Below, one piece after another: positions 1,668 through 23,051 of a stretch of DNA of 23,051 nucleotides. The notes beneath the pieces are model-generated. The model did not search any database. It was not told where the DNA came from and saw only the letters and a list, made by a program, of their open reading frames with translations. The translations under genes and the position numbers were made by a program. The stretch is taken from contig NC_030991.1 of the NCBI RefSeq assembly GCF_000149955.1, positions 1,830,168 through 1,853,218 of the forward strand, given 5' to 3'. This DNA comes from Fusarium oxysporum f. sp. lycopersici 4287 (lineage: Eukaryota; Ascomycota; Sordariomycetes; Hypocreales; Nectriaceae). Every line of letters begins with the position of its first letter. Positions within the stretch are counted from its first letter, which is position 1.

Positions 1668-4600
1668 CAGCGCAGCCCCCAGATCAAATCCAATCAAACA
1701 AATTGCCAAACAAATCAATCAAATATGCCAAAATTTTATTTCAATCAAACAAATACAAAATCCTCGATTTGAAATAACATTTGATATATTTGATACACAA
1801 TATGCCATCCAGCGTCCATGCTGCCAGACCGTTGACCGCGCTTTCACAGCTTACCCGGAACCTGGCTGGTGAGCGACCCCAGCCAATCAAAGTCATCCAT
1901 CAAGCCTTCCATTAGTGAGCTACCCCAGTACCACGGTCAGGCTGGTGGGGGAGAAAGTAGCTCCTTAACTTTTACGTCCCGTCCTCGCGACATCAAGTCG
2001 CGTCGGTGCTAGTTTGTTTACCTTTCAACGCGTACCATTCCTCCCACGAGTCGACGCCTAACCCGATGGAATCCGACGACATCATGCTTCCTTCGCCTCC
2101 ACCCTCTGCCTTTTCTTTTCTTCGACCACCGAGGAATTTGGCGAGTCAATTCGAGCTGACGACGCAGTCGGCATTGCCAGACCACCCTACTGTTGCAGAT
2201 CTTCCGCGAGCAGTGTGGAGGAACAAACGATATGTTTTGGAAGAGTCCTTGTCCCGGAAGGGCTCGAAGGGCCGGAAGAGCTGGATCAAGCGCCATGGAT
2301 TTTTTCTTGTTGAGATCGACACTAACGACAGTCCTTTGAGTCCTTACTGGGCCTGTCGTTTGTGTGACGCGAAGGGTCAGCCTGAGTTCTTCGCCGCTGC
2401 TGCTACGAGTTCGGCAGCGGACCATCTCCGCAAGTATGTGAATGTGAATGTGACGTCGCGAGCTTGAGCACTATTGACCAACGCCAGGTCTCACAGGATT
2501 TTCGAGAGCAGTCAAGCAGCTGATCCAGATCTGTCAACCGATGAATCTGAACGGCCTAAGCGACGACGCTTGCAGTACAGCGCCGTGCCGCGTGCTAGAG
2601 TCAAGATGATCCGAGAACTGAGCCTGGGACTTCTGATCAACACCAATGTTCCTTTTTCCTTCTTCAGCGATACATTCTTTCAGCAGCTCGCTTGGCAGCT
2701 TGACCCTCACCTAGCTGACCAGATACCATGGAGCCGGCAATCGATGGGCCGTTTGCTGGATGACACGTACAAGTCTAAGAAAGATGAGATCAAGCAGGAG
2801 CTCTCAGATGCCCTTACTAAAATCCATCTGGGGTTCGACCTGTGGACATCGCCTAATCGGCATGCTGTTATGGCAGTCACAGCTCATTTTCTTGACCGCC
2901 AGGGCAAGCACCAGTCGCGCCTATTGGCACTCCGTCGCCAGCTAGGGTGTCATAGCGGAGAAAGTCTTGCGGTGACGCTCGGGCAAGTTGTGCGAGAATG
3001 GAAGATAGAGGACCGAGTCGGAACCGTGATCTCGGACAACGCATCTTCAAACGACAGCTGTCTCGTGAACTTTTACGGAGATCTCGACGCAGAGATGAGT
3101 CTGGCGGACGTTCGGGCCAGACGTATGCGCTGTTATGGGCATATCCTGAACCTGGTTGCTCGCGCCTTTCTCTACGGCGAAGATTTCGAGTCTTTCGAGG
3201 CCGAATCGCAGGTATTTGATCTTCTCGGCCGGCGCGAGGATGACCTACGACACTGGAGAAAGAAAGGGCCGGTGGGAAAGCTCCACAATGTTGTCAAATT
3301 CATCAGATCTTCCCCTCAGAGGTGTGAGCTCTTCAAAAGGATCTCACGCGAGAACGACGAAGCACAAGAATACCTCTTGGCGAGTGAGTCGACGGCAGAG
3401 CTAGAGGTCGTAATGAATAACGATACGAGATGGAACTCCACTTATCTCATGATCTCTCGAGCGCTCGTCAAGCAGGGAGACATCAGGGCGTTCTTGGTCC
3501 ACCCAGAAGTGGAGAAATGGCTACCGGAGGCCGACATGCTGAAGGGAGATGACTGGAGACTGTTGGCAGAAATCAAACTTATTCTTGAGCCATTCTATCT
3601 ACAGACTATGAGAACGCAGGGCTGGGGCAGCGAAGGAGGTAACGGACGGCTCTGGGAAGTGATGACGGGTATGGAGTACTTGCTGGAACACCTAGAGGAT
3701 CGGAAGCTGTTCCATCATGCCGTTCCAGATGAGGCAGGGGGGCAGGACACCAACTTGTAGGCCGAGCTGGCTCGAGGGCGACCAGACCGTAACCGGCAGC
3801 TTCCTGCTCGATTTAGGGATTGCGAGACGGATATCCATCCGCGAAAGTCCAGGCAAGGCCCCTTGTCAGATCGTGGCTCGAGACAATGCGATGATGGATC
3901 AGGCAAGCCATCAGGATCATTAGGAATCGATGACATGGGAAAGGATCACCGACACTATTTAAGACTGTCCATCATGACTGCCTGGCAGAAACTAAACGAG
4001 TACTACACCAAGCTTGGAGACTCACCGTTGTTCGCTGCATCCATCATCCTCCACCCATCACTCGGCATGAACTATCTGGAGGTGAACTGGGCGTCGGAAG
4101 AGCAGCTTGTGTGGGTGAGGGATGCCAAAATTGGACTGTCTGACTACTTGGACCGTTGGTACCACTGCAACCGGCCGGTGGATGAGCAGCAGAAGATGAT
4201 CATGGACACATCGACATCCTTAAGCGTACCAAGGACGACAACTGAAGTTAGCGTGTTCAAGCAATGGATTAAAAGCAGGACAGCGAAGACCACGGTGATG
4301 GGAAGCGAGCTTGAGCGGTATCTGCGGCTAGAGCCGCAAGAGACTGAGGATCCAATCGAGTGGTGGATGGCTCACCAGGGACAATTCCCGATGATCAGCC
4401 AATTGGCTCTCGATATACTCGCGATACCGGCGATGGCGACTGATTGCGAGAGGTCGTTCAGCCTAGCCAAGCTAACGCTGACGACGCAGAGGCTTTCGAT
4501 GACGACGGAAACGCTGGAGAAGTTACAATGCCTTAAGAACTGGGTCAGACATGGTGCGGTGAAGCTAGGGGCGACAATAGGTGGGGGGGAGGAGGTCCAA

Positions 4601-4759
4601 TGGGAGATTGGAGATGTTAGCATGGAAGCATAGAGAGTCAGATTTGAAATATTTGAAATATTTGAATAAATATTTCAAACAACAAATCCAGTCTTGAGAG
4701 TTATCAAATATCTCAAATATGACCCCGGATTTGATTTGTTTGATTTGAGGGCAGCGCTG
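1668..4759 (+). mobile_element. hAT-family DNA transposon, complete with TIRs and 8-bp target duplication
   Basis: The left end begins CAGCGCAGCCCCCAG and the right end, reverse-complemented, begins CAGCGCTGCCCTCAA. The two ends match at 18 of the first 21 positions. Both flanks carry CGCTCCAT (1660-1667 and 4760-4767), a perfect 8-bp duplication, which is diagnostic of hAT elements. Subterminal regions (about 1740-1800 and 4640-4715) are rich in TTTGAAATA/ATTTGA words in both orientations, typical of transposase-binding repeats. The element is 3,092 bp and encodes one transposase on the plus strand. It sits in the 5' coding part of a regulator gene. Confidence 0.93.
2066..4633 (+). pseudogene. 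hAT transposase (one intron, one in-frame stop)
   Basis: Two exons, 2066-2433 and 2488-4633, are joined by a 54-nt intron (GTATGT...GCCAG). Splicing restores the end of a BED-like zinc finger (DHLRK-SHRI). Before it, CRLC near residue 97 gives the cysteine pair. Further on are FDLWTSPN and ISDNASSND, typical surroundings of hAT catalytic aspartates. The C-terminal dimerisation block runs from DPIEWW through LAIPAMATDCERSFSLA to the tail. Length is about 837 residues, normal for fungal hAT. A TAG at 3758-3760 lies in the variable linker before the last third; it could be CAG changed by C to T. I found no intron that would remove it. The start is the first in-frame ATG; a GTG at 2006 was not used. 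The copy is probably non-autonomous now. Confidence 0.85.
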
Positions 4760-7788: not shown

Positions 7789-8400
7789 CTAGAATCGGTT
7801 GGAAGGGAGCCTGACAGGTTGCAGTTAGACACAAGCCCTTTCTAGAACGTCATTGGTACGGGGACTTACCATTTGCCTCGCATCGTAATTACAACCCAGG
7901 GGTTACCCTCCTCGTCAATATCTTTCTCGACCTTGGTGCCGAAGCGGATAGCGCTCATGATACCGTCGCCGAATTTCTCGTTAAGGATAGCCTTGTATGC
8001 GTAGCCGTAGTTCTGGACAACCTCGTATAGGCGGTAGATAAGCGGCTCAACAGGAGGCATAGGGCCAGAGTGACCACGGTTAGGGAACACACCCATAGCA
8101 TTAGTTAGCATTGGCAGGGGTAGATCGAGGAGCTGGGAGAGTTTCTCGATGTCCTCATCTGTAGCAGTAGTTTGGGCATAGAACAGTGCGGCGCATGCTA
8201 CTTCGCTGCGCCCAAGATGCTTGGCAATAGCCTCAAAAGTGAGGCCTTTTGCCTGCTTGGCCTCGAACAGCGCGGTACAGTGAGGTGGAACCCTCTCTGC
8301 GATGAGCGGCTAGCAACTAAGGTCAGAGTCTTCTTGCGCCGCCTGTCCACGGGATGAGAGAACATACGTCGAGAGTTGCAAGTCGTCCTTCGAAAGACAT
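7789..8400 (-). CDS. cynS: Cyanate hydratase (cyanase)
   Basis: Cyanase converts cyanate and bicarbonate to carbamate, which yields ammonia and CO2. Exons are 8400-8368, 8309-7870 and 7810-7789, giving 164 residues, close to the usual 150-165. Intron 1 (8310-8367) runs GTATGT...TAG. Intron 2 (7811-7869) has a perfect GTAAGT, a CTAAC branch site and TGTCAG. The last exon encodes only LPSNRF, replacing the usual LPY-type tail. The N-terminal helical domain (residues 12-80, with [17 protein letters not shown]) and the C-terminal catalytic domain are complete. The expected catalytic residues are present: R104 and E107 in IYRLYE, and S130 in DGIMSAI. A TATA-like word about 160 nt upstream supports the ATG at 8400 over an in-frame ATG at 8598. 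It diverges from a carbonic anhydrase gene. Confidence 0.95.
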
Positions 8401-8557
8401 TATGAGGGATGTAAAAGATATCGAGTGATAATTGTTTGCTGCTTGTGGAGTAGCGAGGAAGAGTAGTTGACTGGGACGAGGTGTATCAGGTATTTGTTGT
8501 GTTGGTTGTGATGGTAGAGGCCTTGATGAGAGATAGGAGAATCGGATGATGCCTGGT

Positions 8558-8565
8558 ATTTTATA
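8558..8565 (-). promoter_or_regulatory. TATA-like box upstream of cyanase
   Basis: Minus-strand TATAAAAT lies 158 nt before the chosen ATG. It is followed by a CA-rich stretch that looks like a fungal 5' leader. Confidence 0.4.
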
Positions 8566-8893
8566 GTCCCTCGCAAGTCGCTTCTTGCTGCGACGCATGG
8601 TCTGATGTCATGCCGAGGCGACCGAGGATATGTGTGCGCTCCCTCATAGGCGAAGCATCAATGATGGTACACTATACGCAATGAATGAACTTTGTCGATG
8701 AAAGGGAACAACACCCCCCTTGCTCTGACTTGGTCTCAGATATGGTCCCGAAGGTTCTCCGAGTCGGTGTCTTCGAGGATGAGGGAATGCTTTCTCCGCG
8801 GCCCCATGCTTTGGTCGCATAAGGATCCTGATGCTGGCATCAGGATAACTCTTCTGAGCACGAGAAAAAGTCGCCCGCTGATCCGTTGTCTCG

Positions 8894-8926
8894 CTGTGTC
8901 AGCCCTGTGTCAGCCCTGTGTCAGCC
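8894..8926. repeat. Three tandem copies of an 11-bp unit
   Basis: CTGTGTCAGCC is repeated three times without change, followed by a partial CTGT. It lies in the cyanase/carbonic anhydrase intergenic region. No function is evident. Confidence 0.85.
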
Positions 8927-9513
8927 CTGTTTCTGGTTAGTGTCGATGTCGAGCATCTCGGTGGGAACGGAGGTGGAGATGTTGGACCCTTGCCCCACCG
9001 ACTCCAGGCACATGGTCGAGGAATTTATCGCAGACATGAATGGCGACATGGGCAAGCCTTACGACTGCACTATTGTTTGAGACATTGGACATTATCAAAC
9101 GGAGTTCTCGAGGCAATTCTTTGCGAGCGTAGAAATTGGCTTACTGTTTCCGAGTCCCTGAAAAATCTACCCATCCCGCACGGCAGTCCTTGTCTCCCAC
9201 TTTATCCCCGTAAGATCCGATGCGGCGCTTGCATCTTTGGAGACTTGGAGAGGCGCAGTTGCCGGGCGTCCGTCACCATCTCCGAAAGTCGACAGGAGCT
9301 TTGGCGGAGCGGCCGACGACATCGCCGCTTACCGGAATCACTCAGTCGCGAGAAATCAGATGCAACTACAAGGAACCCCCAACACCATGACTGCTTTTTC
9401 TTCTCGACCACTTGCTTTTCTAACGAAACCCACGCATCTATCACCTTGAAACGCAGTCTTCTCTTCATTCCCCTCTCAATTCTGCAATACGCATATCTGA
9501 AAATTGGCCCATC

Positions 9514-10182
9514 ATGGCTCAACGGGACGTCAGCGAGTATTTGCGACAGACGCATGCTCGCATCTTCGAAAACAACAAGAAGTGGGCAGAGCAGCAGCGC
9601 GCCAACAACCCCGGGTTCTTTGACAAGATCTCCGCCGGCCAGAGCCCCGAATACCTTTGGATTGGCTGCGCAGACTCTCGCATCCCGGCTGAGCAGGTCA
9701 CAGGCCTGGAGCCCGGCGAGGCCTTTATTCACCGTAACATTGCCAATGTTGTTCATAATATTGATCTAAATGCCATGTCTATCATCAACTATGCTGTGCA
9801 TCACCTTGGCGTCAAGCATATTATTGTTTGCGGACACTACGGCTGCGGTGGTGTTCGGGCTGCTATGACTCCCAAGGATATGGGTTTACTCAACCCATGG
9901 CTGCGAAACATCCGCGACGTCTATCGTCTTTATGAGAAAGAGCTCGATGCTATCACCGACGAGGAGCAACGGTACAACCGCCTGGTAGAGCTGAACGTGC
10001 GCGAGCAGTGCCGAAATATCGTTAAGACTGCTGAGGTCCAGCAATCATACGCCAAGAACAGCTTCCCTATTGTCCATGGCTGGGTGTTCAACCTCCACAA
10101 TGGCCTACTGACGGATCTCAAAATTGACTTCCCTGCCATGCTCAAGGACGTCCAGAAGGTCTACAACATCACTGAGGAGTAA
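9514..10182 (+). CDS. Beta-class carbonic anhydrase
   Basis: This intronless gene encodes 222 residues, typical of fungal cytosolic beta-carbonic anhydrases related to yeast Nce103. The enzyme interconverts CO2 and bicarbonate. The zinc ligands are visible as C52 (in CADSR), H108 and C111 (in HYGCGG), with the D54-R56 dyad alongside. No N-terminal targeting peptide is apparent, so a cytosolic location is likely. The ATG at 9514 is in good context (CCATCATGGC) and starts just before the conserved first helix. The divergent neighbour is cyanase, which uses bicarbonate and releases CO2. A carbonic anhydrase next to cyanase parallels the bacterial cynT-cynS pairing, and I infer that it supplies or recycles bicarbonate for cyanate breakdown. 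Confidence 0.95.
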   Translation: MAQRDVSEYLRQTHARIFENNKKWAEQQRANNPGFFDKISAGQSPEYLWIGCADSRIPAEQVTGLEPGEAFIHRNIANVVHNIDLNAMSIINYAVHHLGVKHIIVCGHYGCGGVRAAMTPKDMGLLNPWLRNIRDVYRLYEKELDAITDEEQRYNRLVELNVREQCRNIVKTAEVQQSYAKNSFPIVHGWVFNLHNGLLTDLKIDFPAMLKDVQKVYNITEE

Positions 10183-12169: not shown

Positions 12170-12543
12170 TATTAGGCTATGGAAAGCTATCTTGCTCAAG
12201 TGCTATTTATATAAGGATTTATAAAGAGTATAAAGGAGAGATATATAAAGGAGATAAGACAGAGATAAGAGAGATAAGAAGAAATAAAGATAGAGAGATA
12301 AAAAGAGGTAAAAGAGATATAAATATAAGAAGGATAGATAGGAATATAGGTAAGATATAGATAGGAAAGAGATATAAATAGGGGAGAGATAGAGATAGGA
12401 AAGAGATAGAGATAAGAAAGAGATAGAGATAAGAAAGATATAAAGATTAGAAAGAGATAGAGGTAAAAAAGAGATAGAGGTAAGGGAGAAATAGGGAAAA
12501 GAGATAGGTTAAGAAGGAAGATAGGTTAAAAAGAAAGATAGGT
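12170..12543. repeat. Purine-rich (plus strand) low-complexity tract, LINE 3' UTR
   Basis: About 300 bases are dominated by AGAGATA, AAGAGATAGAGATA and AGATAGG words, with almost no C. It lies between the nuclease stop and the telomere-like tail, so it is the transcribed pyrimidine-rich 3' UTR of the LINE. Confidence 0.8.
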
Positions 12544-15500
12544 CTAGGAGCGCGTTCTCCTAGGTAGATCTCGAGCTATAGAGGCAGCTGAGATAGCCCT
12601 AGTCTTAGTCAAGGTAAGGCCGATAGTTGAGTCTAGCTGTGAGGCTGCAAAGGGACCTAAGAGCTCTTGGAGCTTCTTGTAGGTCTGTGAGGTCTCCTGA
12701 TCCATAAGGCCGCCTGCTGAGAAGATGAGAGGGTGGAAGAAGGCTCCAAGAGACTGATATTTCCGCCTTTTCTCACTAGCAGCTTCCTTCAAGGTGCTAT
12801 AGGGGTCCTCCTTTGCAGAGTCCTTGGAGATAGCTACGATTTGGATATCATAGAAGTAGCGGCTATTTCCAATAGTGACTGCAAAGTCTGCCCGGAGGGA
12901 GGGAGTCTTGCTGGACTAGGGGTTCGATCTCGACCTCAAGGTCAGGCCGGCTGCCTAGGGCTTTCACAAAGGCCCTATTAACAGCATTATGCCTTGCAAT
13001 CCACCTTCTGCTAGCTCCCTTGCAAGTATCCTCATGGCCTAGGCTAGCTATAGCACCACAGGCACTACAGGGCAGGTCTAGAGGCTTGATAGGGTAGAAA
13101 AGTCTGCTTCTAAGGGCTTCAGTGGTCTCAGAGTCTGTAAAAGAGTGGGGTTTCTGTGTAGGTAAGACTCTAAGCCACTTGCGGCCTAGATAGCTAGCAT
13201 TCTCTAGCCTGGCTTGCTTATAGGAAATAGGGAGGTCTTGGAGGAAGGTTTCTAGCTTAGCCTCGTTTAACTCTTTAAAAACCTCTTTAGCTGATTTCCC
13301 TTGGTCTTGACTAGGGTTTTGGGCTTCTGAGGTAGATAGAGAGGGGTAAGATGTAAAAAAGCTAGTAATACCTGTAAGGATCTTCTTAGCTGTTTCCTTA
13401 GCTGCCTGATATAGGCCTTGGGCTAATTCCTTATGCAAAGGAAGCCCAAGACCTCCTTCCCTTACAGGAAGGGATAAGAGATAGGGATCAGGCTCTTTAG
13501 GACGCTCAGCTGGGCTCCTAGCTACTAAGGCCATAATAGCTTCCTTGATAAGGATATCAGCTCTTTCCCATAGGTCAGATAGACCTTCTGGGTTAAGTTG
13601 CCGAAGGAGGTGCCGTAGAAGGAGGTGGATACTGCCTCGTAGGAGAAGGAGGGAGTGTTGCTTAGGCAGGTCTTGAAGAGCAGCTATAGCCTGCTGTAAG
13701 GTATCTAGCTTTTCTTCTAGAAATGCCCTTTTGCCTTCTAGGGGACCTATATAAGTACCTAAGGTCTTAAGGCCATGGTCTTTAAGGTCCTTCATAGCTA
13801 TTTCCTTGCTTTTAGCTAGGTTAAGCTTATAAGGTGATTTCTCTAGTACCTCTCTAGCTATATCTAGAGATCCTTGGTCTTTAGATAAGATATAAAGGTC
13901 ATCTAGATAAGCAACTAGGGTTGCCTCTGGAAGCTTTCTAGCTAATTCCTCTAGAGTAGGTCTAAAAGAGAGGGAAAAGAGAAGTGGTCCTATTGGGTCT
14001 CCTTGCCTAACCCCTTTAGAAGAGGCTATGGTTGAACCATCTGGAAGGACTAGCAGTGAGGGGTTATTATAAGCCCAGGTTGGGGCCCTATAGAAGGTAG
14101 GGGCAAAGGAGGCCACTGAGGATGCTATAGAGGGTCTAGCCCCGCTGTTAAAGGCGTTGTGGAGGTCAACTGAGGTGATATATTGGAAATCAGCCTTATT
14201 TGGGCCAGCTATAGCTTCCTCAAGAAGGAAGATAGCTGGTTCTACTCCTCCTGGGCTGCTAACGCCTAGCTGGAAGGGCAATAGCATAGAGGAGCTAAAG
14301 GAGGTCTTTAAGATTGCTTTCATAGCTACCTTATAGATAAGATCTCCTATAGCAATAGGTCTAATACCTCCATCTGGCTTCTCTAGGCCGATAAGGCGGC
14401 TTGCACATAATAGGTCTGCCCCTGGGGCTGTTCCTTGCCTTATCATATCAGCTAGTAGCCTTAGGAAGGCTATAACTGGGGAATCTGCCTTAGATACTAG
14501 GTTCAGAAGTGGCCTAGTCCAGCCACTAAGGCCGGGGGCTTTTTCTTTTCCTATAGTAGCTATAGAGGCAAGGATAGCTTCCTCTGCAATAGGTTGGCCA
14601 GGTCTTGGGCGAGTCTTTCTTGAAAAGGGGTCCTTTGAGCCTATTGGGTGTTTTTCAAGTAAGATGGCCCTGTTTTCAGCTGAATCAGCAGCTATAGGGG
14701 TAGGGTCTATAAGAGCTCGAGAAGCCCGTCCTAGGAAGCCTCTTTCTAGCATCTTAGCTGCCCTCTTAGCAGGGCTAGGGGCTGTTTTCCTTCCTTGAGA
14801 AAGGGAAAAGGGAGTGCTTTGAGCTGGGCTTTGTAGGAGGCTTTCCAGGGTCTCTAGGGAAGGGATATTAGAAGGATAGGCTCGGAGATAGGTAGATAAA
14901 TCTCCTTTCTGAATTCCAAGACCTAAGATTCTAGGGAGGATAAGGAAGTATAAGAGGTTTTTCTCCGTAGGTCTCTTTATAAAGGCCTCAGCGGCTTTTT
15001 GAGCAGCTATCTTGAAAATAGCTGCTTGTCTAGCTTGTAGCTTTTTCTCTACTATGGGGATTTTTGCATAGGCTAGAAGCTTCTGTATAGATCCCTTAGC
15101 TAAGATTGGTGCTATAGCCTCTTGGTGTTGCTGCTGAAGGTCTGGGGGAGGGGAAAGGGGAGTCTCTAGGTCTAATAAGATATCTTCAAATCCTTGCGAT
15201 ATAGATCTGTAAGAGGACTTGGAAGAAGATCTTGAAGAAGACCTTGAGGAGGACCTTTGAGATGACCTTGAAGAAGACCTAGCTGTAGCCTGAGGAATAG
15301 GTCTAGCTGGGGTCTGGGGGATAGGTCTAGCTGGGGTCTGGGGGATATGTGATATAGACCTAACTGGAGACTGAATAGAATCCTCTTCTATAGGACTAGA
15401 AGGGGGAATAATAGCCTGAAAAGCAGTCTCTTGCCTAGGTCTTCCTCTTTCAGCTATAGGAAAGGCAGGGATTTCAGGAAGGTCTGGGAAAAATAACCTA

Positions 15501-15916
15501 GATTGGTCTTCTGGAAAGAGGCTGCTTTGGGGTGGGCTAAGAGACTGAGAGCTTAGGAGAGGGTGAGGGCTAGGGCTGGAAGGCTGCTGCCTTTGCCTCT
15601 GTGAGGGTCTTGCTATCTCTGGGGAAGGGGTTTTAGCTGGCCTTTTCCTTCTAGCAGCTAGCTCTTTAGCTAAGGCTATTGTAGATGGATGAGGCTGATA
15701 TTGGGCCCTAGTAGCTGGATAGGTCCTTATCCTAGGAAGAGTAGAGATATTTGAAGTCCCTCTTATTCCATGGATTTTAGCACTATGAGCCTTGATGCCC
15801 TGGGCTCCTTGGCAAGCTGTTGAGCAGTGTGGGCACCTAGCTAGATTTAGAGGTTGTAGCTGCTGATCTGTATAGGCTTCGGTGGGGTGTTTTTTGCGGA
15901 TATGCTCTAGAATATC
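12544..15916 (-). pseudogene. LINE polyprotein: zinc finger, reverse transcriptase, REL endonuclease (frameshifted)
   Basis: The frame is open from 15916 to the stop at 12863, about 1,017 codons, with no in-frame ATG for the first 388; the true start was lost by 5' truncation. The protein begins with the end of one finger (HIRKKH), then a full C2H2 finger (CPHC, 12 residues, HSAKIH). A linker with a duplicated PIPQTPAR unit and RSSS repeats follows. The RT has LGVSSPGG, TSVDLHNAF, RQGDPIGPLLFSL and the catalytic YLDD. The C-terminus has a CSAC...H...C knuckle and RHNAVNRAF, typical of the restriction-like endonuclease. Near 12899 a 4-base CTCC duplication shifts the frame. The rest of the nuclease, including ADFAVTIG, YFYDIQIVAI and KRRKYQSLGAF, continues in another frame to 12544. 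This copy is therefore inactive unless the duplication is a sequencing error. Confidence 0.85.
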
Positions 15917-16230: not shown

Positions 16231-17307
16231 ATGGCCAGCTCTTCTATTCACGCGCAACAAAGTCACCCCACTTTGCCTCCAGCAAAGCTGCAGAAGCTCG
16301 AAAGGCTCAGCCTTTATTACAATTTGCCGGAAGCAGCTATTATATGTACTAAATGCGGTTTTGCTTTGAGTCCTAAACGCGCATCGGAGCATCCGGGCAA
16401 AAAGCACGGCATTGCCAGATCTGCTCGGCATGGCCTCAAGCCCCTCCTATCCTCATTACACCTCCCAGACCCAGACACCTTGGTCCCCAGGCCAAATGGA
16501 TCACGACGCCATCCATGCCTTACAGTACAACAAGGCTGTTCATGTAAGCACTGCGGTCTCCATTCTGCTAGCTGAAAGGTTCTGGAGGATCACCTGACGG
16601 CCGAACATCGCGACAAGTTGGAGCTCACAGTCGGAAAGAACAGCCGACAGCACAGGCTGCGAGACCATATCCAGCAAGGAGTTCTCTTCCAGAGCTGGAC
16701 AGAGAATAACAATCAAAGGTCATGGCTCGTCAGTACTGGCAACGACTTCAACAGCGGATCTATACCCAGCAGCATTCCCCCGCAGGCCAGTCCTGATCCT
16801 ATCAAGCTCCTTGCTCAGAAGCTATTTACTGAGGAGCATGCCCGTTTGGAAAGTCAGCAAAGTGGTGGTTAAAGATACTGTAGTAAAGAGCCACCAGCTT
16901 CTTCCGCCTTACAGACCAACTGGTTGCGGCGCACAGGCTGGGAAACGACATTCAGAGACGCGCATCGTGATATTCTAGTTCGCCTTGCGGCGCTACCTCA
17001 CTACACAGCTAACCGACCTTTGCCTCTTGGTGTGGTAGAAGGAGAGGAAATATTCAGTCTGGCACGCGACGAGCGTAAGCTAGTATTTATGATGGCCGCA
17101 CAAGATCGGCTCCTGGATCAATGCGGTGAGACAGTCCGAAAGACGGATGTCTGCTTGAGAAGGTGGCTTCGCAGCAGGTTCCCAGATCGCCCTTACAAGG
17201 TGCCCTTTGAGTTGGTTGCAAAATCATCTTCTGAGAAGATCTACCGGTAAGAGCTCAAGCGCTTTGTCTGCTTCTGGGTTCGATTATTTCGGTTCATGAT
17301 GCGTTAA
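16231..17307 (+). pseudogene. OrsD-like (DUF3505) pseudogene, three stops and truncated
   Basis: One frame can be followed throughout: 16231-16575, 16618-16872 and 16924-17250 are all in phase. Features recall fungal DUF3505/OrsD-like proteins: an early ICTKCGFAL...H finger-like piece, a second CKHCG...LEDHL finger, RTGWETTF, and DRLLDQCGETVRKTDVCLRRWLRS followed by a KRFVCFWVR block. In-frame stops are TGA at 16573, TAA at 16870 and TAA at 17248; each could come from a single C-to-T change (CGA, CAA, CAA). Homology ends at a TAA at 17305, well short of the usual family length. It ends where a direct repeat begins (17301). The function of intact family members is poorly known. Confidence 0.7.
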
Positions 17308-17590: not shown

Positions 17591-18679
17591 TCAATATATA
17601 TTCAGGTCCTTGCCAATAGAAAAATGACCCGAACCGGAGTTTTGGGTCCCCTTGCCATGAAAAACGTGGCGAGCGGCTAGCCCGTTGCCCCAATATGACG
17701 CTGCGTCCTTGGAAGATACCGGTACAGCAGAGGCCACCTCTGGATCTATGTAAGTGAGTAGCTCCTTGGTGCATGCGGCGGCAGTTGCAGCCGCGTAATG
17801 CTGCCAGTTGTCATTCTTATGAGAGTCAGCATAGTCGGAGATACCACGAATGACAATGCACGAGAACTCAGTCATTAGCCCTGCTGCTTCCATCTCGAAG
17901 CAGAGGATGTTGCCGATGTTACGGATGACCTCACTTCTTTTCGCAGTACTCCTCACAACACGATCGCCAGAAGCGATTAATCCGTAGTGTATCTCGGGGC
18001 CTTCAAATTCGCGACACGACCTGGAGACGGATTTTTGTCGGTCGCATTTCTCGCATGTGAGGTTCTGCGGGTCATGAGGATAATCCGTTTCAAACAGGAC
18101 ATCAAGATCGGCGGAAGGTTGCTCATAGACGGAAAGGCGTCTTCCGGTCTCCGACATCGCTGATAAGAACTCCTCAGCCCTGCTTTCGCTGACACGGTGA
18201 TCAGACCGCATTTTCATGACGGCACCTCTCAAAAGAGGCGGCGGTGGCGAGAGGAAGTCATTAAGGGCGAAACCGTCATCGGTTCCTTTCCCTAGATCAT
18301 ATTGAACGACACCGCCGTATTGCCCCTCGGGCATGCTCACCACGACATCGCCCAGCCGGATGTCGTGCTTAGTGCTAGGAACTCCACCACCAATGCCGAC
18401 GAGAAATTGCCACTTGATGCAGGAGAAGGTGCGAGTCATATTTGTGGCCACAATTGCGGCGGAGCCTTTTCCTTGGTTTCCGGGGAGGCACGCGAGGACC
18501 ACGTTATGGCCCTGGAGCACACCCAGGATGTAGATGTTAAAGTCGCCTTCCTTTGTTGGCAGACTGCGATGCTCGACGTCTAACATGTATCGGACGGCGC
18601 TCATCTCGAGCTCCATGGCGCAAACAACTGCGACGGTGTATTCTTCGTAGGCCCGAGGGGTTCTCTGCCCGTCCTGCAT
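17591..18679 (-). CDS. PNP_UDP-fold protein with C-terminal amyloid-like motif, putative NLR effector
   Basis: A single exon from ATG 18679-18677 encodes 362 residues. The nucleoside-phosphorylase/nucleosidase fold fills residues 15-310. It has the glycine-rich GIGGGVP loop (95-101), FEMEAAG (261-267) and RGISDYAD (278-285) with the expected catalytic acid, all as in the PNP_UDP domain often fused to fungal NLRs. Related immune effector domains in bacteria degrade ATP; whether this one does is unknown. Here the domain is not fused to a NACHT domain. The last 23 residues (340-362) form a Gly/Asn/Ser-rich motif, FHGKGTQNSG then HFSIGKDLNI, closely matching the N-terminus of the divergent NLR at 19448. 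A CEKC...C cluster (residues 209-222) inside the domain may be an insertion. The gene appears intact. Confidence 0.85.
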   Translation of the reverse strand: MQDGQRTPRAYEEYTVAVVCAMELEMSAVRYMLDVEHRSLPTKEGDFNIYILGVLQGHNVVLACLPGNQGKGSAAIVATNMTRTFSCIKWQFLVGIGGGVPSTKHDIRLGDVVVSMPEGQYGGVVQYDLGKGTDDGFALNDFLSPPPPLLRGAVMKMRSDHRVSESRAEEFLSAMSETGRRLSVYEQPSADLDVLFETDYPHDPQNLTCEKCDRQKSVSRSCREFEGPEIHYGLIASGDRVVRSTAKRSEVIRNIGNILCFEMEAAGLMTEFSCIVIRGISDYADSHKNDNWQHYAAATAAACTKELLTYIDPEVASAVPVSSKDAASYWGNGLAARHVFHGKGTQNSGSGHFSIGKDLNIY

Positions 18680-19447
18680 TACAATACTATTAACATATTA
18701 GGGAGGCCATACCCACCTAGGGATGATATTTCTTACAATGGATTTCGATGCAGTAGATTTAGAGTGGTCTTAAGAAGTGGGAATCGATTATTTTTGGCAG
18801 GTAGAATCAGTATCGCACTGAGCGTGCTTAAAGGGTTAAAGTGAATACGATGAGCAGCAGCAAACGCGTTGATTGAAAGTTGTCTTTTCGTGCGGGGTAT
18901 TCCATTCCGCAGAGTTAAAGCATACAGCTAGATTACTAACGCAATTGTCTCGAGCCCGTGAAGAACATACCTACCCTGCGACACCAAGTCAGGTGCGGCG
19001 TGCTTGACGCCACGCCCTTAGGCTGAGGGGCTTATGTCTGCTGTTGTAACGCGTAGCCACAATAGCCGTGGTTGCCAAGGAGGTCGCATTTTTGACGTGT
19101 TGCCATTCTCTCGACTCACCTTGTAAAAGAAGCAACAACACAGCCTAGACTGCAGTCTAACGAGCAGGCACCTCATCTGTTCTGTTACCAGAGTCCCAGC
19201 CTAGCCAATGACGCATGCGCAAACTTCTTCGAGGCCTCATTGGCCCGCGCGCTGCCTAGCTCAGCCTGATCTTCCTCTTTCATGAGCTGAAGGCTACTGC
19301 CTGCCTAATCTCTACCAGCTTGATTGTGTAGACTCTCGCGCCGTGGAGTACAGACCCAACGGACAGAAGCCTGACGTGCAAGCATCCGATACGGAAGAAA
19401 GACGCGAAAAGCGACTGCCCGCGCCGGGACATTGATCTCCACACGAC
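18680..19447. promoter_or_regulatory. Shared upstream region of the PNP gene and the NLR gene
   Basis: These 768 bp separate the divergent pair and hold no gene that I can support. Copy 2 of the direct repeat lies here. Divergent arrangement suggests coordinated expression, but no specific regulator site was recognised. Confidence 0.45.
18866..18914 (+). repeat. Degenerate direct repeat, copy 2 (5' side of the PNP gene)
   Basis: The core is TGCGGGGTATTCCATTCCGC followed by AGAG, in the same orientation as copy 1. The two copies bracket the phosphorylase-like gene. Confidence 0.6.
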
Positions 19448-22265
19448 ATGAGCGGGGCACCCAGCGAGGCAATCTGCAGGTCGAACGGGCCTGGTGTTCG
19501 ATTGGCGTTCTACGGACAGGGGATTCAGAACTCGGGCAACTTTCAAGTTGGAGGCAACCTAAATATCGGTAGAGATTTGACAGCGCATGACAGTATTGAT
19601 CGCTAACGAACCCGAAGGAGTGCAGGATAATTCCGATAAAGATGCAGAGTTCTTAGCCGCCCTACGATCCACCGACCCCAGCGACGACAGAACGCGCATC
19701 CAGCGGCAAAAGGGCGGCCTGCTGGAAGACTCATATAGCTGGATCCTTGACCATGCGGACTTCCGGCGATGGCGCGACGATGAACAAAGTCGGCTACTAT
19801 GGGTCAGGGGAGATCCCGGCAAAGGCAAGACAATGCTGTTGTGCGGGATCATCCGAGAGCTGGAGAAACTACCTGCGGATACGCGCCGCTTGTCCTACTT
19901 CTTCTGTCAGGCGACCGACGTGCGCCTTAGTAGCGCGACGTCCGTGCTCCGCAGCCTCCTCTATCTCCTCGATCAGGAGCCGTCGCTGATGTCGCACGTA
20001 CGGAAGAAGTTTGCTCACGCGGGTAAACAGCTATTTGAAGACGTGAATCAGTGGGATGCCCTGTCCAAGATTCTCGCCAATATCTTGCAGGACTCAAGCC
20101 GGCCGAACACCTTCTTAATCATCGATGCGCTTGACGAGTGCGAGACAAATCGCGACCAGCTTCTTGAATTGCTTGTCCAGATATCCTCTTCATATTCCGC
20201 TAAACTGATTGTGTCCAGTCGTAACTGGCCAAGTGTCGAGAAGGCCCTAAGAGCATCTACGCAGAAGCTCCGAATCTGTCTCGAACTCAACCATGAGTCA
20301 ATCTCCTCCGCTGTTAGCAGATACATTGATCACAAGGTAAACGAGCTGACTCAGTTGAATAATTATGACAGCAAAACACAGGACGCTGTTCGGCACCACT
20401 TAGCCTCCAACGCAAATGACACGTTCCTATGGGTAGCCTTAGTCTGTGAGGAGCTTCGGAAGATTGAGACCTGGGATGTACTGGAAGTTATAAAGGAGGT
20501 GCCTGCTGGCTTGGAAGATCTGTACGATCGAATGATGCAACAGATCCAAAGGCTGGGACGGCGGGATCAGGAATGGTGTCGATCTGTACTGTCGGCAGTT
20601 ACCACAGCCTATCGTCCACTTCATCAAGAGGAATTAGGCTACCTCTCAACCTTACCGTTGAATATTCAAAAAATGAATGACCACATGTCGACGGTCACAG
20701 GCATGTGCGGCTCGTTCCTGACAATCAGAGACAACGTTGTCTATGTCATTCATCAGTCTGCCAAAGAGTTTTTGTCCTCGAACACATATATCTTTCCTTC
20801 TGGCAAGAGAGATCAGCACCATGCCATGTTCTCGAGGTCACTAAAGATTCTTTCGAGGACCCTCCGACGCAACATTTACAGCTTACACGCCCCAGGATTC
20901 CCCATCGACCAAGTCACGCCGCCCGTCCCTGATCCATTAGCGTCCATCCGATATCCATGTATCTACTGGGCTGACCACCTAAGCGACGCCATACCGCTTG
21001 CAACTTCAGAGCCCATCGACGACCTCCGCGACGACGGCACAGTCCAGCAGTTTCTTAGTAAAAAGTACCTCTACTGGCTCGAGGCGCTGGGCCTTCTTCG
21101 AGGCATACCGGAAGGCATGATTGCGATGACGAAGTTGAGACATTACTAGTAGGTGAATTGACTTGATGAACGCCTGGAACCGATGTGCTAATTAATATCT
21201 TTATTAGGAAAAGTACGACGGCTCCCGCTTTTTCGACCTCGTTCGAGATGCACACCGCTTCATCCTATCACACGGGTGGGCGATAGGGAATGCGCCTCTT
21301 CAGGCATATGCATCAGGGCTTATCTTCAGCCCTAGGCGGTGTATAATTAGGAATCTATTTGCAGGGGAAGAGCCGGATTGGATTATAATTAAACCGGCTA
21401 TGGCGGAGGATTGGGATGCATGTTTGACAACGCTTGAGGGCCATAGTGATAGGCTTACGTCGGTGGTCTTCTCGCCCGATGGCTGTCGTCTCGCATCGGC
21501 GTCAGATGATAGGACCGTCAAAATCTGGGATTCTACGACAGGCCGCTGCCATACAACGCTTGAGGCCATAGAAGTAAGGTTTTATCAGTGGCGTTCTCGC
21601 GTGATTCCCAGCGCCTCGCAACAGGGAGCTATATGGCCGGCGCCAAGATCTGGGATGCCAAGACGGGCCAATGCGAGGCGACGCTCGAAGGCCATAGCAA
21701 TAGAGTTACATCGGTAGTCTTCTCGCCGGGTGGCCATCGTCTCGCATCGGCGTCACTCGACAAGACAGTCAAGATATGGGATGCCACAACGGGCCACTGC
21801 GAGGCGACGCTCGAGGGCCATGGTAATTGGGTTGTGTCGGTGGCCTTCTCGCCTGATGGCCAGCGTCTCGCATCGGCTACACACGACGGGTTCATCAAGA
21901 TCTGGGACGCCAGGATGGGCGGTTGCCAGGCGACGCTCGAGCTCGATAAGAATGAGGAGGATGAATATATTTTCCATTTCGAAAAGACCGGCGCTCGCCT
22001 TCGTACGAATATTGGCACGTTCGACCTCAGCCTGCTCCCATCCTCGCCGCCCGCTGCACTGCCTGCATCCAGCCCTCGGCATCACCTACTTCAATGTCAA
22101 GGTTATGGCATTAGTTCTGATCGTTCATGGATCACATATGAAGGTCGGAATCTGCTCTGGCTCCCCCCAGAGTATCGCCCAGTGACATTAGCGATCATGG
22201 CATCAACTGTAGTACTCGGCTGTAAATCGGGACTGGTCTTGCTATTCCGGTTCTCGGAGGCTTAG
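19448..22265 (+). pseudogene. NLR: amyloid-like motif, NACHT, WD40 repeats (damaged copy)
   Basis: Proposed exons are 19448-19568, 19618-21152 and 21208-22265. Intron 1 (49 nt) runs GTAGAG...GCTAAC...AAG and joins the N-terminal motif (FYGQGIQNSG, NFQV, NLNI; residues 23-40) to the NACHT domain. NACHT has the P-loop GDPGKGKT (about 105-112) and Walker B FLIIDALDE (about 196-204). Intron 2 (55 nt, GTGAAT...GCTAAT...TTAG) is phase 0, but two TAG codons lie directly before it (21147-21152), where CAGCAG|GT would be ordinary. After intron 2 come a conserved linker and four WD40 repeats (GHS...VVFSPDG..LASAS...KIWD). Near 21563 a missing G in GAGGGCCAT shifts the frame within repeat 2. Without splicing past the stops the product is a 550-residue motif-NACHT protein lacking WD40. 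The final TAG overlaps a telomere-like tail. Confidence 0.8.
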
Positions 22266-22407: not shown

Positions 22408-22448
22408 ACTTTGTCCCATATACAGGAATAGTAGTGCCGATCAGAGCA

Positions 22449-22484
22449 GGGGTTTACCCCAGAACGCGACGGGTCCTGTCGCGT
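22449..22484. repeat. Two adjacent small inverted repeats
   Basis: GGGGT-TT-ACCCC (22449-22460) is followed by ACGCGAC-gggtcct-GTCGCGT (22464-22484), both with perfect arms. They lie just upstream of the LINE ORF1 remnant. Confidence 0.6.
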
Positions 22485-22527
22485 AAAGTGCTCCGAACTG
22501 GACAATCCCACGTGGCGATGCCGAGCG

Positions 22528-23051
22528 GTGACTAGGGACCCAAAGAATCCCCACCGAGTCAGGATCACCTGCAGGGACGAGAGCGAGCATGAGATTGTGA
22601 AACGCGCAGCGGAAACAAAACTGGCCCCAGGAGCCCGGATCCTACGAGACGAGTTGTACCCTATCAGAGTGGATAATGTCAGCCGTATTGCGGTCCTAAA
22701 CGAGAGGAACGAAGTTCGAACTGAGATCACCGAGATGCTCGGCCGAGAAAATGACACCGAGGTTGCAAAGATAGCGTGGCTCAGCAAGAGAGATATCCCC
22801 AAGGCGTATGGCTCGATGGTCGTATATCTCAAAAAAAAAAAAAAAAAAAAAAAAAAACGGTCAGAGGCTAGGCGGTTCATCAATAAAGGATTCTTTGTGG
22901 CTAGAGGAGAATGCAGTACGACAAAGATGTTTGCACGTCATGACCGCCTCAAGCAATGTTATAACTGCTAACAGATCACAAGCCATAAAGCCTGTCAGTG
23001 TGATAGACCACAGGTTTGTAGAAGGTGCACGTAAGAAGGCCATCACCACAG
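22528..23051 (+). pseudogene. Tad1-like LINE ORF1 (gag-like) fragment, cut by the window end
   Basis: The sequence resembles the C-terminal half of Tad1-clade ORF1 proteins. It has IRVDNVSRIAVL, then AKIAWLSKR and KAYGSMVVYL, and then zinc knuckles CYNC...HKACQC and CRRC...EGHHH, where the window ends. The 5' part is missing and no ATG is present. Two in-frame TAA stops lie in the knuckles (22969-22971 and a second near 23032); both fit CAA changed to TAA. A run of 27 A (22831-22857) encodes nine lysines in frame where a short KG-type turn is expected. This is a decayed copy and belongs to a LINE clade different from the element at 12147-15916. Confidence 0.75.

What the first reader, a model, noticed from the sequence alone, without database searches (positions are those of the whole stretch)
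17591..19632. Divergent PNP-fold protein and NLR share a short amyloid-like motif: candidate two-gene immune signalling pair
Seen: the PNP protein ends with F-H-G-K-G-T-Q-N-S-G, then H-F-S-I-G-K-D-L-N-I. The spliced NLR begins with F-Y-G-Q-G-I-Q-N-S-G, then N-F-Q-V-G-G-N-L-N-I. The shared pattern is FxGxGxQNSG, a 2-residue gap, F-x-[IV]-G-x-[DN]-LNI, at the effector C-terminus and the NLR N-terminus of adjacent divergent genes. Known: in HET-s/NWD2, sigma-motif and PP-motif systems, fungal NLRs carry an N-terminal amyloid motif that templates the same fold in a separate effector encoded nearby, and PNP_UDP domains are usually fused directly to fungal NLRs. Inference: here the PNP effector is unfused and recruited by amyloid templating. 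The motif recalls sigma and RHIM-like sequences, but I could not place it in a named class.
Basis: partly seen in the sequence, partly recalled or inferred. Interest (0 to 1): 0.87.

Follow-up and report, generated by a model that had tools for sequence, protein, structure and literature searches.

The report
Fungal amyloid-motif immune pair, broken receptor
Two neighbouring Fusarium genes share a short peptide motif of a kind already shown in another fungus to form prion-like fibres, through which an immune receptor is thought to switch on a likely nucleotide-cleaving enzyme; the enzyme gene is intact, but the receptor gene is broken in this sequence.

Summary
The PNP_UDP protein (minus strand, 17591-18679) ends in FHGKGTQNSGSGHFSIGKDLNIY; the head-to-head NLR begins with FYGQGIQNSGNFQVGGNLNIG. 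A profile of 86 PNP-side C-termini from other fungi picks out two of 546 window ORFs: the PNP itself and the NLR's first exon; the best of 2000 shuffles reaches 6.7 bits against 38.6. Eight of 12 shared residues use different codons.

The motif is not new: it is PUASM (PMC9815663). A Colletotrichum PUASM peptide, identical at 16 of 24 residues, forms fibrils and a prion.

The 49-nt intron matches gene models (FOXG_07279 of F. oxysporum f. sp. lycopersici 4287 is identical over 550 residues); there is no RNA evidence.

Against an intact 983-residue relative it lacks the upstream start, has a stop before the motif and breaks frame near 21137 and 21564, which cuts off the WD40 sensor. The effector is intact.

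Small new point: the link between the motif's two strands is 6 or 4 residues, with one exception. This pair and two related pairs combine a 6-residue effector with a 4-residue receptor.

The parts
17591..18679 (-). PNP_UDP_1 effector gene, 362 residues, one intact frame
   Evidence: PF01048 57.2 bits; 94% identical to F. oxysporum P0003 over residues 1-361 in one frame
17594..17662 (-). effector-side PUASM motif FHGKGTQNSGSGHFSIGKDLNIY
   Evidence: translation, position, 16 of 24 residues identical to the published Colletotrichum peptide
19343..19447 (+). eroded 5' extension of the receptor: GTG where relatives have the start codon, in-frame stop at 19433-19435
   Evidence: tblastn with P0124 and translation
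19448..19568 (+). receptor exon with the annotated start of FOXG_07279
   Evidence: translation; 550-residue spliced model identical to P0123
19508..19568 (+). receptor-side PUASM motif FYGQGIQNSGNFQVGGNLNI(G)
19569..19617 (+). predicted 49-nt intron joining motif to NACHT
   Evidence: in-frame join; same join in gene models of relatives; no RNA evidence
19618..21149 (+). NACHT exon; ends in a stop where relatives read on
   Evidence: NPHP3_N 130.2 bits, NACHT 47.5 bits; stop; expected residues lie in the neighbouring frame
21208..22253 (+). WD40 sensor region, now out of frame with NACHT and split in two frames at 21564
   Evidence: WD40 matches, frames +1 then +3 against P0124, repeat array 21430-21941 of period 126

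Best explanation
Two head-to-head genes share the PUASM motif, by which the NACHT receptor is predicted to template amyloid assembly on a separate, likely ATP-cleaving nucleosidase, but the receptor's reading frame is broken in this sequence. In relatives with a full-length receptor the likely chain is: the WD40 propeller senses a ligand (inferred); the NACHT domain oligomerises (inferred from NLRs in general); the gathered N-terminal motifs form a cross-beta seed (fibrils of each peptide alone are shown in print for a Colletotrichum PUASM pair, untested here); the seed converts the C-terminal motif of the PNP protein (inferred; the prion experiment in print used the effector motif only, and co-aggregation was left for later); the clustered enzyme destroys nucleotides and kills or arrests the cell (inferred). 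In this genome the effector is intact and the receptor would at best be a 550-residue motif-plus-NACHT protein without its sensor, so the pathway here is likely off or misregulated.
For: Motif match both ways, far above shuffles; similarity held at protein and not codon level; published PUASM pattern met letter for letter on the effector side and in 39 of 120 listed PNP relatives; adjacent genes, PNP_UDP plus NACHT; fold and sequence nearest to MTA/SAH nucleosidases, with the residues aligned to their catalytic Glu and Asp conserved; PADLOC PN-superfamily effector match E 5.5e-14 over residues 240-313; reviews state ATP cleavage for related immune effectors (passages). Receptor erosion.
Against: No fibril, prion, cross-seeding or enzyme data for these sequences. 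The receptor motif is two residues shorter than the published pattern. Splicing rests on gene models only, and two receptor models in other Fusarium (P0128, P0129) start inside the intron and so lack the motif. One Monosporascus receptor (P0231) near a motif-bearing PNP shows no motif in its model. The erosion could be sequencing error. The motif part of the effector model has low confidence (pLDDT blocks 34-51).
Confidence: 0.75

Rival explanations
1. The receptor is not dead but a working short form: a 550-residue motif-plus-NACHT protein without sensor that acts as helper, decoy or primed seed for the PNP effector.
For: The motif and NACHT stay in one spliced frame from an ATG at 19448, and this product is annotated in Fol 4287, its cluster holding 7 member sequences. 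F. anthophilum P0132 (639 aa) also shows motif plus NACHT and no WD40 match in Pfam.
Against: Remains of the whole WD40 region lie downstream in two frames, plus a lost start and an upstream stop, as expected of decay. Cluster members may differ in length.
Confidence: 0.15
2. The frame breaks are sequencing or assembly errors and the receptor is intact.
For: Frame breaks are a common error type in draft assemblies (general knowledge); the NACHT exon is 92% identical to P0124 with no break.
Against: Four separate lesions (start, stop, two frame breaks), two of them substitutions; the FOXG_07279 protein is identical over 550 residues including the early end, although it may be the same sequence record.
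Confidence: 0.12
3. The motif is a structural C-terminal or N-terminal tail that does not signal by amyloid, for example a soluble docking strand between the two proteins.
For: No amyloid test of these sequences; the model shows two strands in the monomer, at low confidence.
Against: A relative of the same class forms fibrils and a prion (PMC9815663, passages).
Confidence: 0.1
4. The shared motif is a recent DNA copy or gene conversion between neighbours.
For: The two genes are under 1 kb apart.
Against: Of 12 shared residues only 4 use the same codon, and 37 of 60 bases match; the motif recurs on both sides in other genera.
Confidence: 0.01

Closest known systems
PUASM pairs, e.g. Colletotrichum gloeosporioides Cg-14 EQB50682.1 / EQB50683.1 (PMC9815663)
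   Same: Motif class, positions (effector C-terminus, NLR N-terminus), PNP_UDP effector, NACHT or NACHT-WD40 receptor, neighbouring genes, Pezizomycotina; effector peptide 16 of 24 residues identical
   Different: Receptor motif here is two residues shorter than the published pattern; receptor gene broken; no experiment on these sequences
HET-S/NWD2, sigma and PP (HELLP-type) amyloid NLR systems
   Same: Two-gene logic: N-terminal amyloid motif on the NLR, C-terminal copy on a separate effector (described in PMC9815663)
   Different: Different motif sequence (no Pfam match) and an enzymatic PNP effector instead of a HeLo pore former
PNP_UDP domains fused to NLRs, e.g. P0151 of F. oxysporum f. 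sp. zingiberi
   Same: PNP_UDP and NACHT in one pathway
   Different: Fused in one chain (PF01048 plus NACHT); here two proteins linked only by the motif
Bacterial immune ATP nucleosidases (Detocs PNP effector)
   Same: Same superfamily; PADLOC PN-superfamily effector match; ATP cleavage stated in reviews
   Different: Coupled here to an amyloid-type motif; substrate untested
MTA/SAH nucleosidase (MTAN)
   Same: Nearest solved relatives by sequence and fold
   Different: 77 bits against a cut-off of 169 for the NCBIfam equivalog

Membership tests
PUASM | Pattern FxGxGxQxxGxGxF at the C-terminus of a PNP_UDP protein | tested here: met
   FHGKGTQNSGSGHF fits letter for letter (pattern)
PUASM | Same motif at the N-terminus of the NLR | tested here: inconclusive
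   Profile of PNP-side motifs gives 38.6 bits, but the literal pattern is two residues short (FYGQGIQNSGNF). The short form also occurs in 13 of 88 classified effector motifs. The authors' own profile was not available
PUASM | Effector is PNP_UDP, receptor NACHT or NACHT-WD40 | tested here: met
   PF01048, NPHP3_N/NACHT and WD40 matches; the WD40 part is out of frame in the window
PUASM | Genes are neighbours | tested here: met
   Head to head, under 1 kb apart
PUASM | Host in Pezizomycotina | tested here: met
   Receptor model identical to a F. oxysporum protein over 550 residues
PUASM | Fibril and prion formation | not testable with these tools
   Shown in print for a Colletotrichum pair only
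Sigma (PF17106), PP/SesB (PF17046), HET-s (PF11558) | Match to the Pfam family of the motif | tested here: not met
   Not among the reported families at E up to 10 for effector, first exon or NACHT exon; HMMER filters may drop weak matches. Accessions from PMC12261475
MTA/SAH nucleosidase equivalog | Curated NCBIfam cut-off | tested here: not met
   NF004079 77 bits, cut-off 169; TIGR01704 36.8, cut-off 73.8
Immune ATP nucleosidase | Nucleosidase fold with catalytic Glu and Asp | tested here: met
Immune ATP nucleosidase | Cleaves ATP on activation | not testable with these tools
   No enzyme data; reviews describe related effectors

The most novel reading that the evidence does not exclude
In the Fusarium-Ilyonectria branch of PUASM, signalling runs through a mismatched pair: receptor motifs have a 4-residue arc and effector motifs a 6-residue arc. 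Because the step is an even two residues, the strands keep their inside/outside alternation, so arc length could act as a specificity or one-way switch in amyloid templating. In this Fusarium the receptor has then lost its sensor, leaving either a sensor-less seed or an orphan, prion-capable enzyme.
Probability: 0.25. Interest if true: 0.5.

Novelty: new member of a known kind. Interest (0 to 1): 0.32.

Why it matters
It places an unnamed motif in a published amyloid signalling class and describes a Fusarium pair of that class. It gives a natural case in which the effector stays intact while its receptor decays. The even-step variation in arc length offers a direct cross-seeding test of how amyloid signalling partners recognise each other.

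Tried and rejected
Sigma, PP and HET-s membership: not among Pfam matches at E up to 10. Housekeeping MTA/SAH nucleosidase: below the NCBIfam cut-off. Recent DNA duplication between the genes: disfavoured by codon use. A frameshift instead of an intron between motif and NACHT: not favoured, because models P0124-P0127 and P0132 join NIG to V at the same place, but RNA evidence is missing. P0128 and P0129 start inside the intron and lack the motif; I take this as misannotation, untested.

No whole genome is held for this window. A paper search for FOXG_07279 found nothing. The search for PUASM listed 11 papers, of which two, PMC9815663 and PMC12261475, concern this motif and nine are unrelated by title. 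PMC12261475 (passages only) scanned F. oxysporum Fo5176 with a PUASM profile among others; its 23 identified motifs are given as 17 sigma and 6 HET-s, so no PUASM is named there. Supplementary tables could not be opened, so I cannot say whether this Fusarium pair is already listed in one; the main text of PMC9815663 does not contain the word Fusarium. The third homologue search, with the first 90 residues of P0124, returned four proteins, all known. Paper searches gave no test of ATP cleavage by an unfused fungal PNP effector (listings). The Foldseek and VIA-align lists name nucleosidases and phosphorylases; no entry shown is titled an ATP nucleosidase, which excludes nothing.

Limits of counts. 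The loose pattern count (45 further rows) included false matches and is not used. The regular expression left 17 of 105 effector C-termini unclassified, misread receptor P0127 and failed on P0130, P0131 and P0150; those four I read by eye as 4, 6, 6 and 6. Alignment A1 holds the window protein and 49 of the 120 listed relatives, chosen by me and mostly with a motif, so the motif conservation computed from it is biased upward.

The odds of the rivals were written in full only in this version; the main confidence was fixed at 0.75.
Full report
What is there. The minus-strand gene at 17591-18679 encodes a 362-residue PNP_UDP_1 protein (57.2 bits). It has one open frame and aligns at 94% identity over 361 residues with a Fusarium oxysporum protein, P0003. 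It ends in FHGKGTQNSGSGHFSIGKDLNIY. Head to head with it, a short exon from 19448 carries FYGQGIQNSGNFQVGGNLNIG; after a predicted 49-nt intron follows a NACHT exon. The spliced 550-residue model is identical over its length to FOXG_07279 of F. oxysporum f. sp. lycopersici 4287, P0123, so the window most likely comes from that species complex.

Is the match more than chance? A profile was built from 86 PNP-side C-termini of other fungi, leaving out P0003-P0006, and run over 546 window ORFs, 2000 shuffles of the receptor's first 90 residues and 119 receptor relatives. Among window ORFs only the PNP ORF (40.1 bits) and the receptor's first-exon ORF (38.6 bits) stand out; the next has 5.3 bits and the best shuffle 6.7. 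21 of 119 receptor relatives pass E<1e-3; these came from a search that included the motif, so this is not a census. The reverse profile, from 17 of those 21 (the Fusarium-Ilyonectria ones left out), reports the same two window ORFs and 89 of 120 PNP relatives; its best shuffle has 10.8 bits. In the window pair 12 of 20 aligned residues are identical, but only 4 of these 12 use the same codon. In 50 aligned PNP proteins, chosen mostly for carrying the motif, the motif keeps a mean majority-residue share of 0.71, the linker before it 0.34 and the catalytic part 0.78. I infer that selection holds the peptide.

What it is. PMC9815663 (outline, passages, sections 19 and 25) describes PUASM, the PNP_UDP-associated amyloid signalling motif: pattern FxGxGxQxxGxGxF, uniquely with PNP_UDP effectors, receptors annotated NACHT or NACHT WD40, hosts in Pezizomycotina. 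Its table gives 33 receptor motifs, 11 with the motif in a neighbouring protein, and 29 effectors. Both Colletotrichum peptides formed amyloid-like fibres in vitro; the effector-side motif behaved as a prion in Podospora when fused behind GFP, while fusions in front of GFP or RFP stayed diffuse; co-aggregation of the pair was left for a separate study. The window effector motif fits the pattern letter for letter and shares 16 of 24 residues with the Colletotrichum peptide. The exact pattern is in 39 of 120 listed PNP relatives.

Splicing. P0123-P0127 and P0132 all read NIG-V at the predicted junction; P0123 is the same gene as the window's. These are gene models, not transcripts, and P0128 and P0129 begin inside the intron instead. 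Of 12 in-frame donor/acceptor combinations, ten keep the motif through NLNI, so the join does not hang on one splice choice.

The receptor is broken. Against the 983-residue F. oxysporum relative P0124 the window has GTG where the start codon lies and a stop at 19433-19435 before the motif. Near 21137 the NACHT frame runs into a stop, while the residues expected next, ETLLVGELT, lie in the neighbouring frame; F. solani P0129 reads ILLVGELA there and P0124 reads ALLEEYD. At 21564 the frame changes again inside the WD40 array, where the two aligned pieces meet with no room for an intron. At best a motif-plus-NACHT protein remains. Sequencing error is not excluded.

Arc length. Between the Q and the start of the second strand lie 6 residues in 74, 4 in 13 and 5 in 1 of 88 classified effector motifs, out of 105 C-termini. 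On the receptor side it is 6 in 15 and 4 in 7 of 22, P0123 (the window's gene) included and four read by eye. The window pair has 6 on the effector and 4 on the receptor. Sequences are related, so the counts are not independent. I saw no discussion of this in the parts of PMC9815663 that I read; its Figure 5 and supplements were not visible.

Pairing in relatives. Compared by eye in the listed rows, 2 of 21 motif-bearing receptor relatives share organism and contig length with a motif-bearing PNP (the two pairs above). Receptor P0231 of Monosporascus sp. 5C6A shares them with PNP P0025, but its model shows no motif. One contig is shown per protein cluster, so this is no synteny survey.

Noticed in passing
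window 7866-10182: A cyanate lyase ORF (minus, 7866-8309) and a beta-carbonic anhydrase ORF (plus, 9424-10182) lie side by side in divergent orientation.
   Followed up: no
window 16231-17250: An OrsD-like (PF12013) ORF lies beside the PNP gene; further ORFs up to 17250 are in other frames without Pfam match.
   Followed up: no
window 2468-4633: hAT transposase with a C-terminal dimerisation domain (PF05699) in the second of two ORFs.
   Followed up: no
window 12863-15916: A 1017-residue reverse transcriptase ORF (RVT_1) on the minus strand, retroelement-like.
   Followed up: no
window 12237-12543: GA-rich minisatellite of several overlapping periods downstream of the reverse transcriptase ORF.
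   Followed up: no
window 22831-22857: A run of 27 A inside an ORF (22435-22971) that ends in a cysteine-rich stretch, perhaps part of another retroelement.
   Followed up: no
P0128 and P0129 (other Fusarium receptors): Two public gene models start inside the predicted intron and so omit the PUASM exon; automatic annotation may be hiding motif-bearing receptors.
   Followed up: partly
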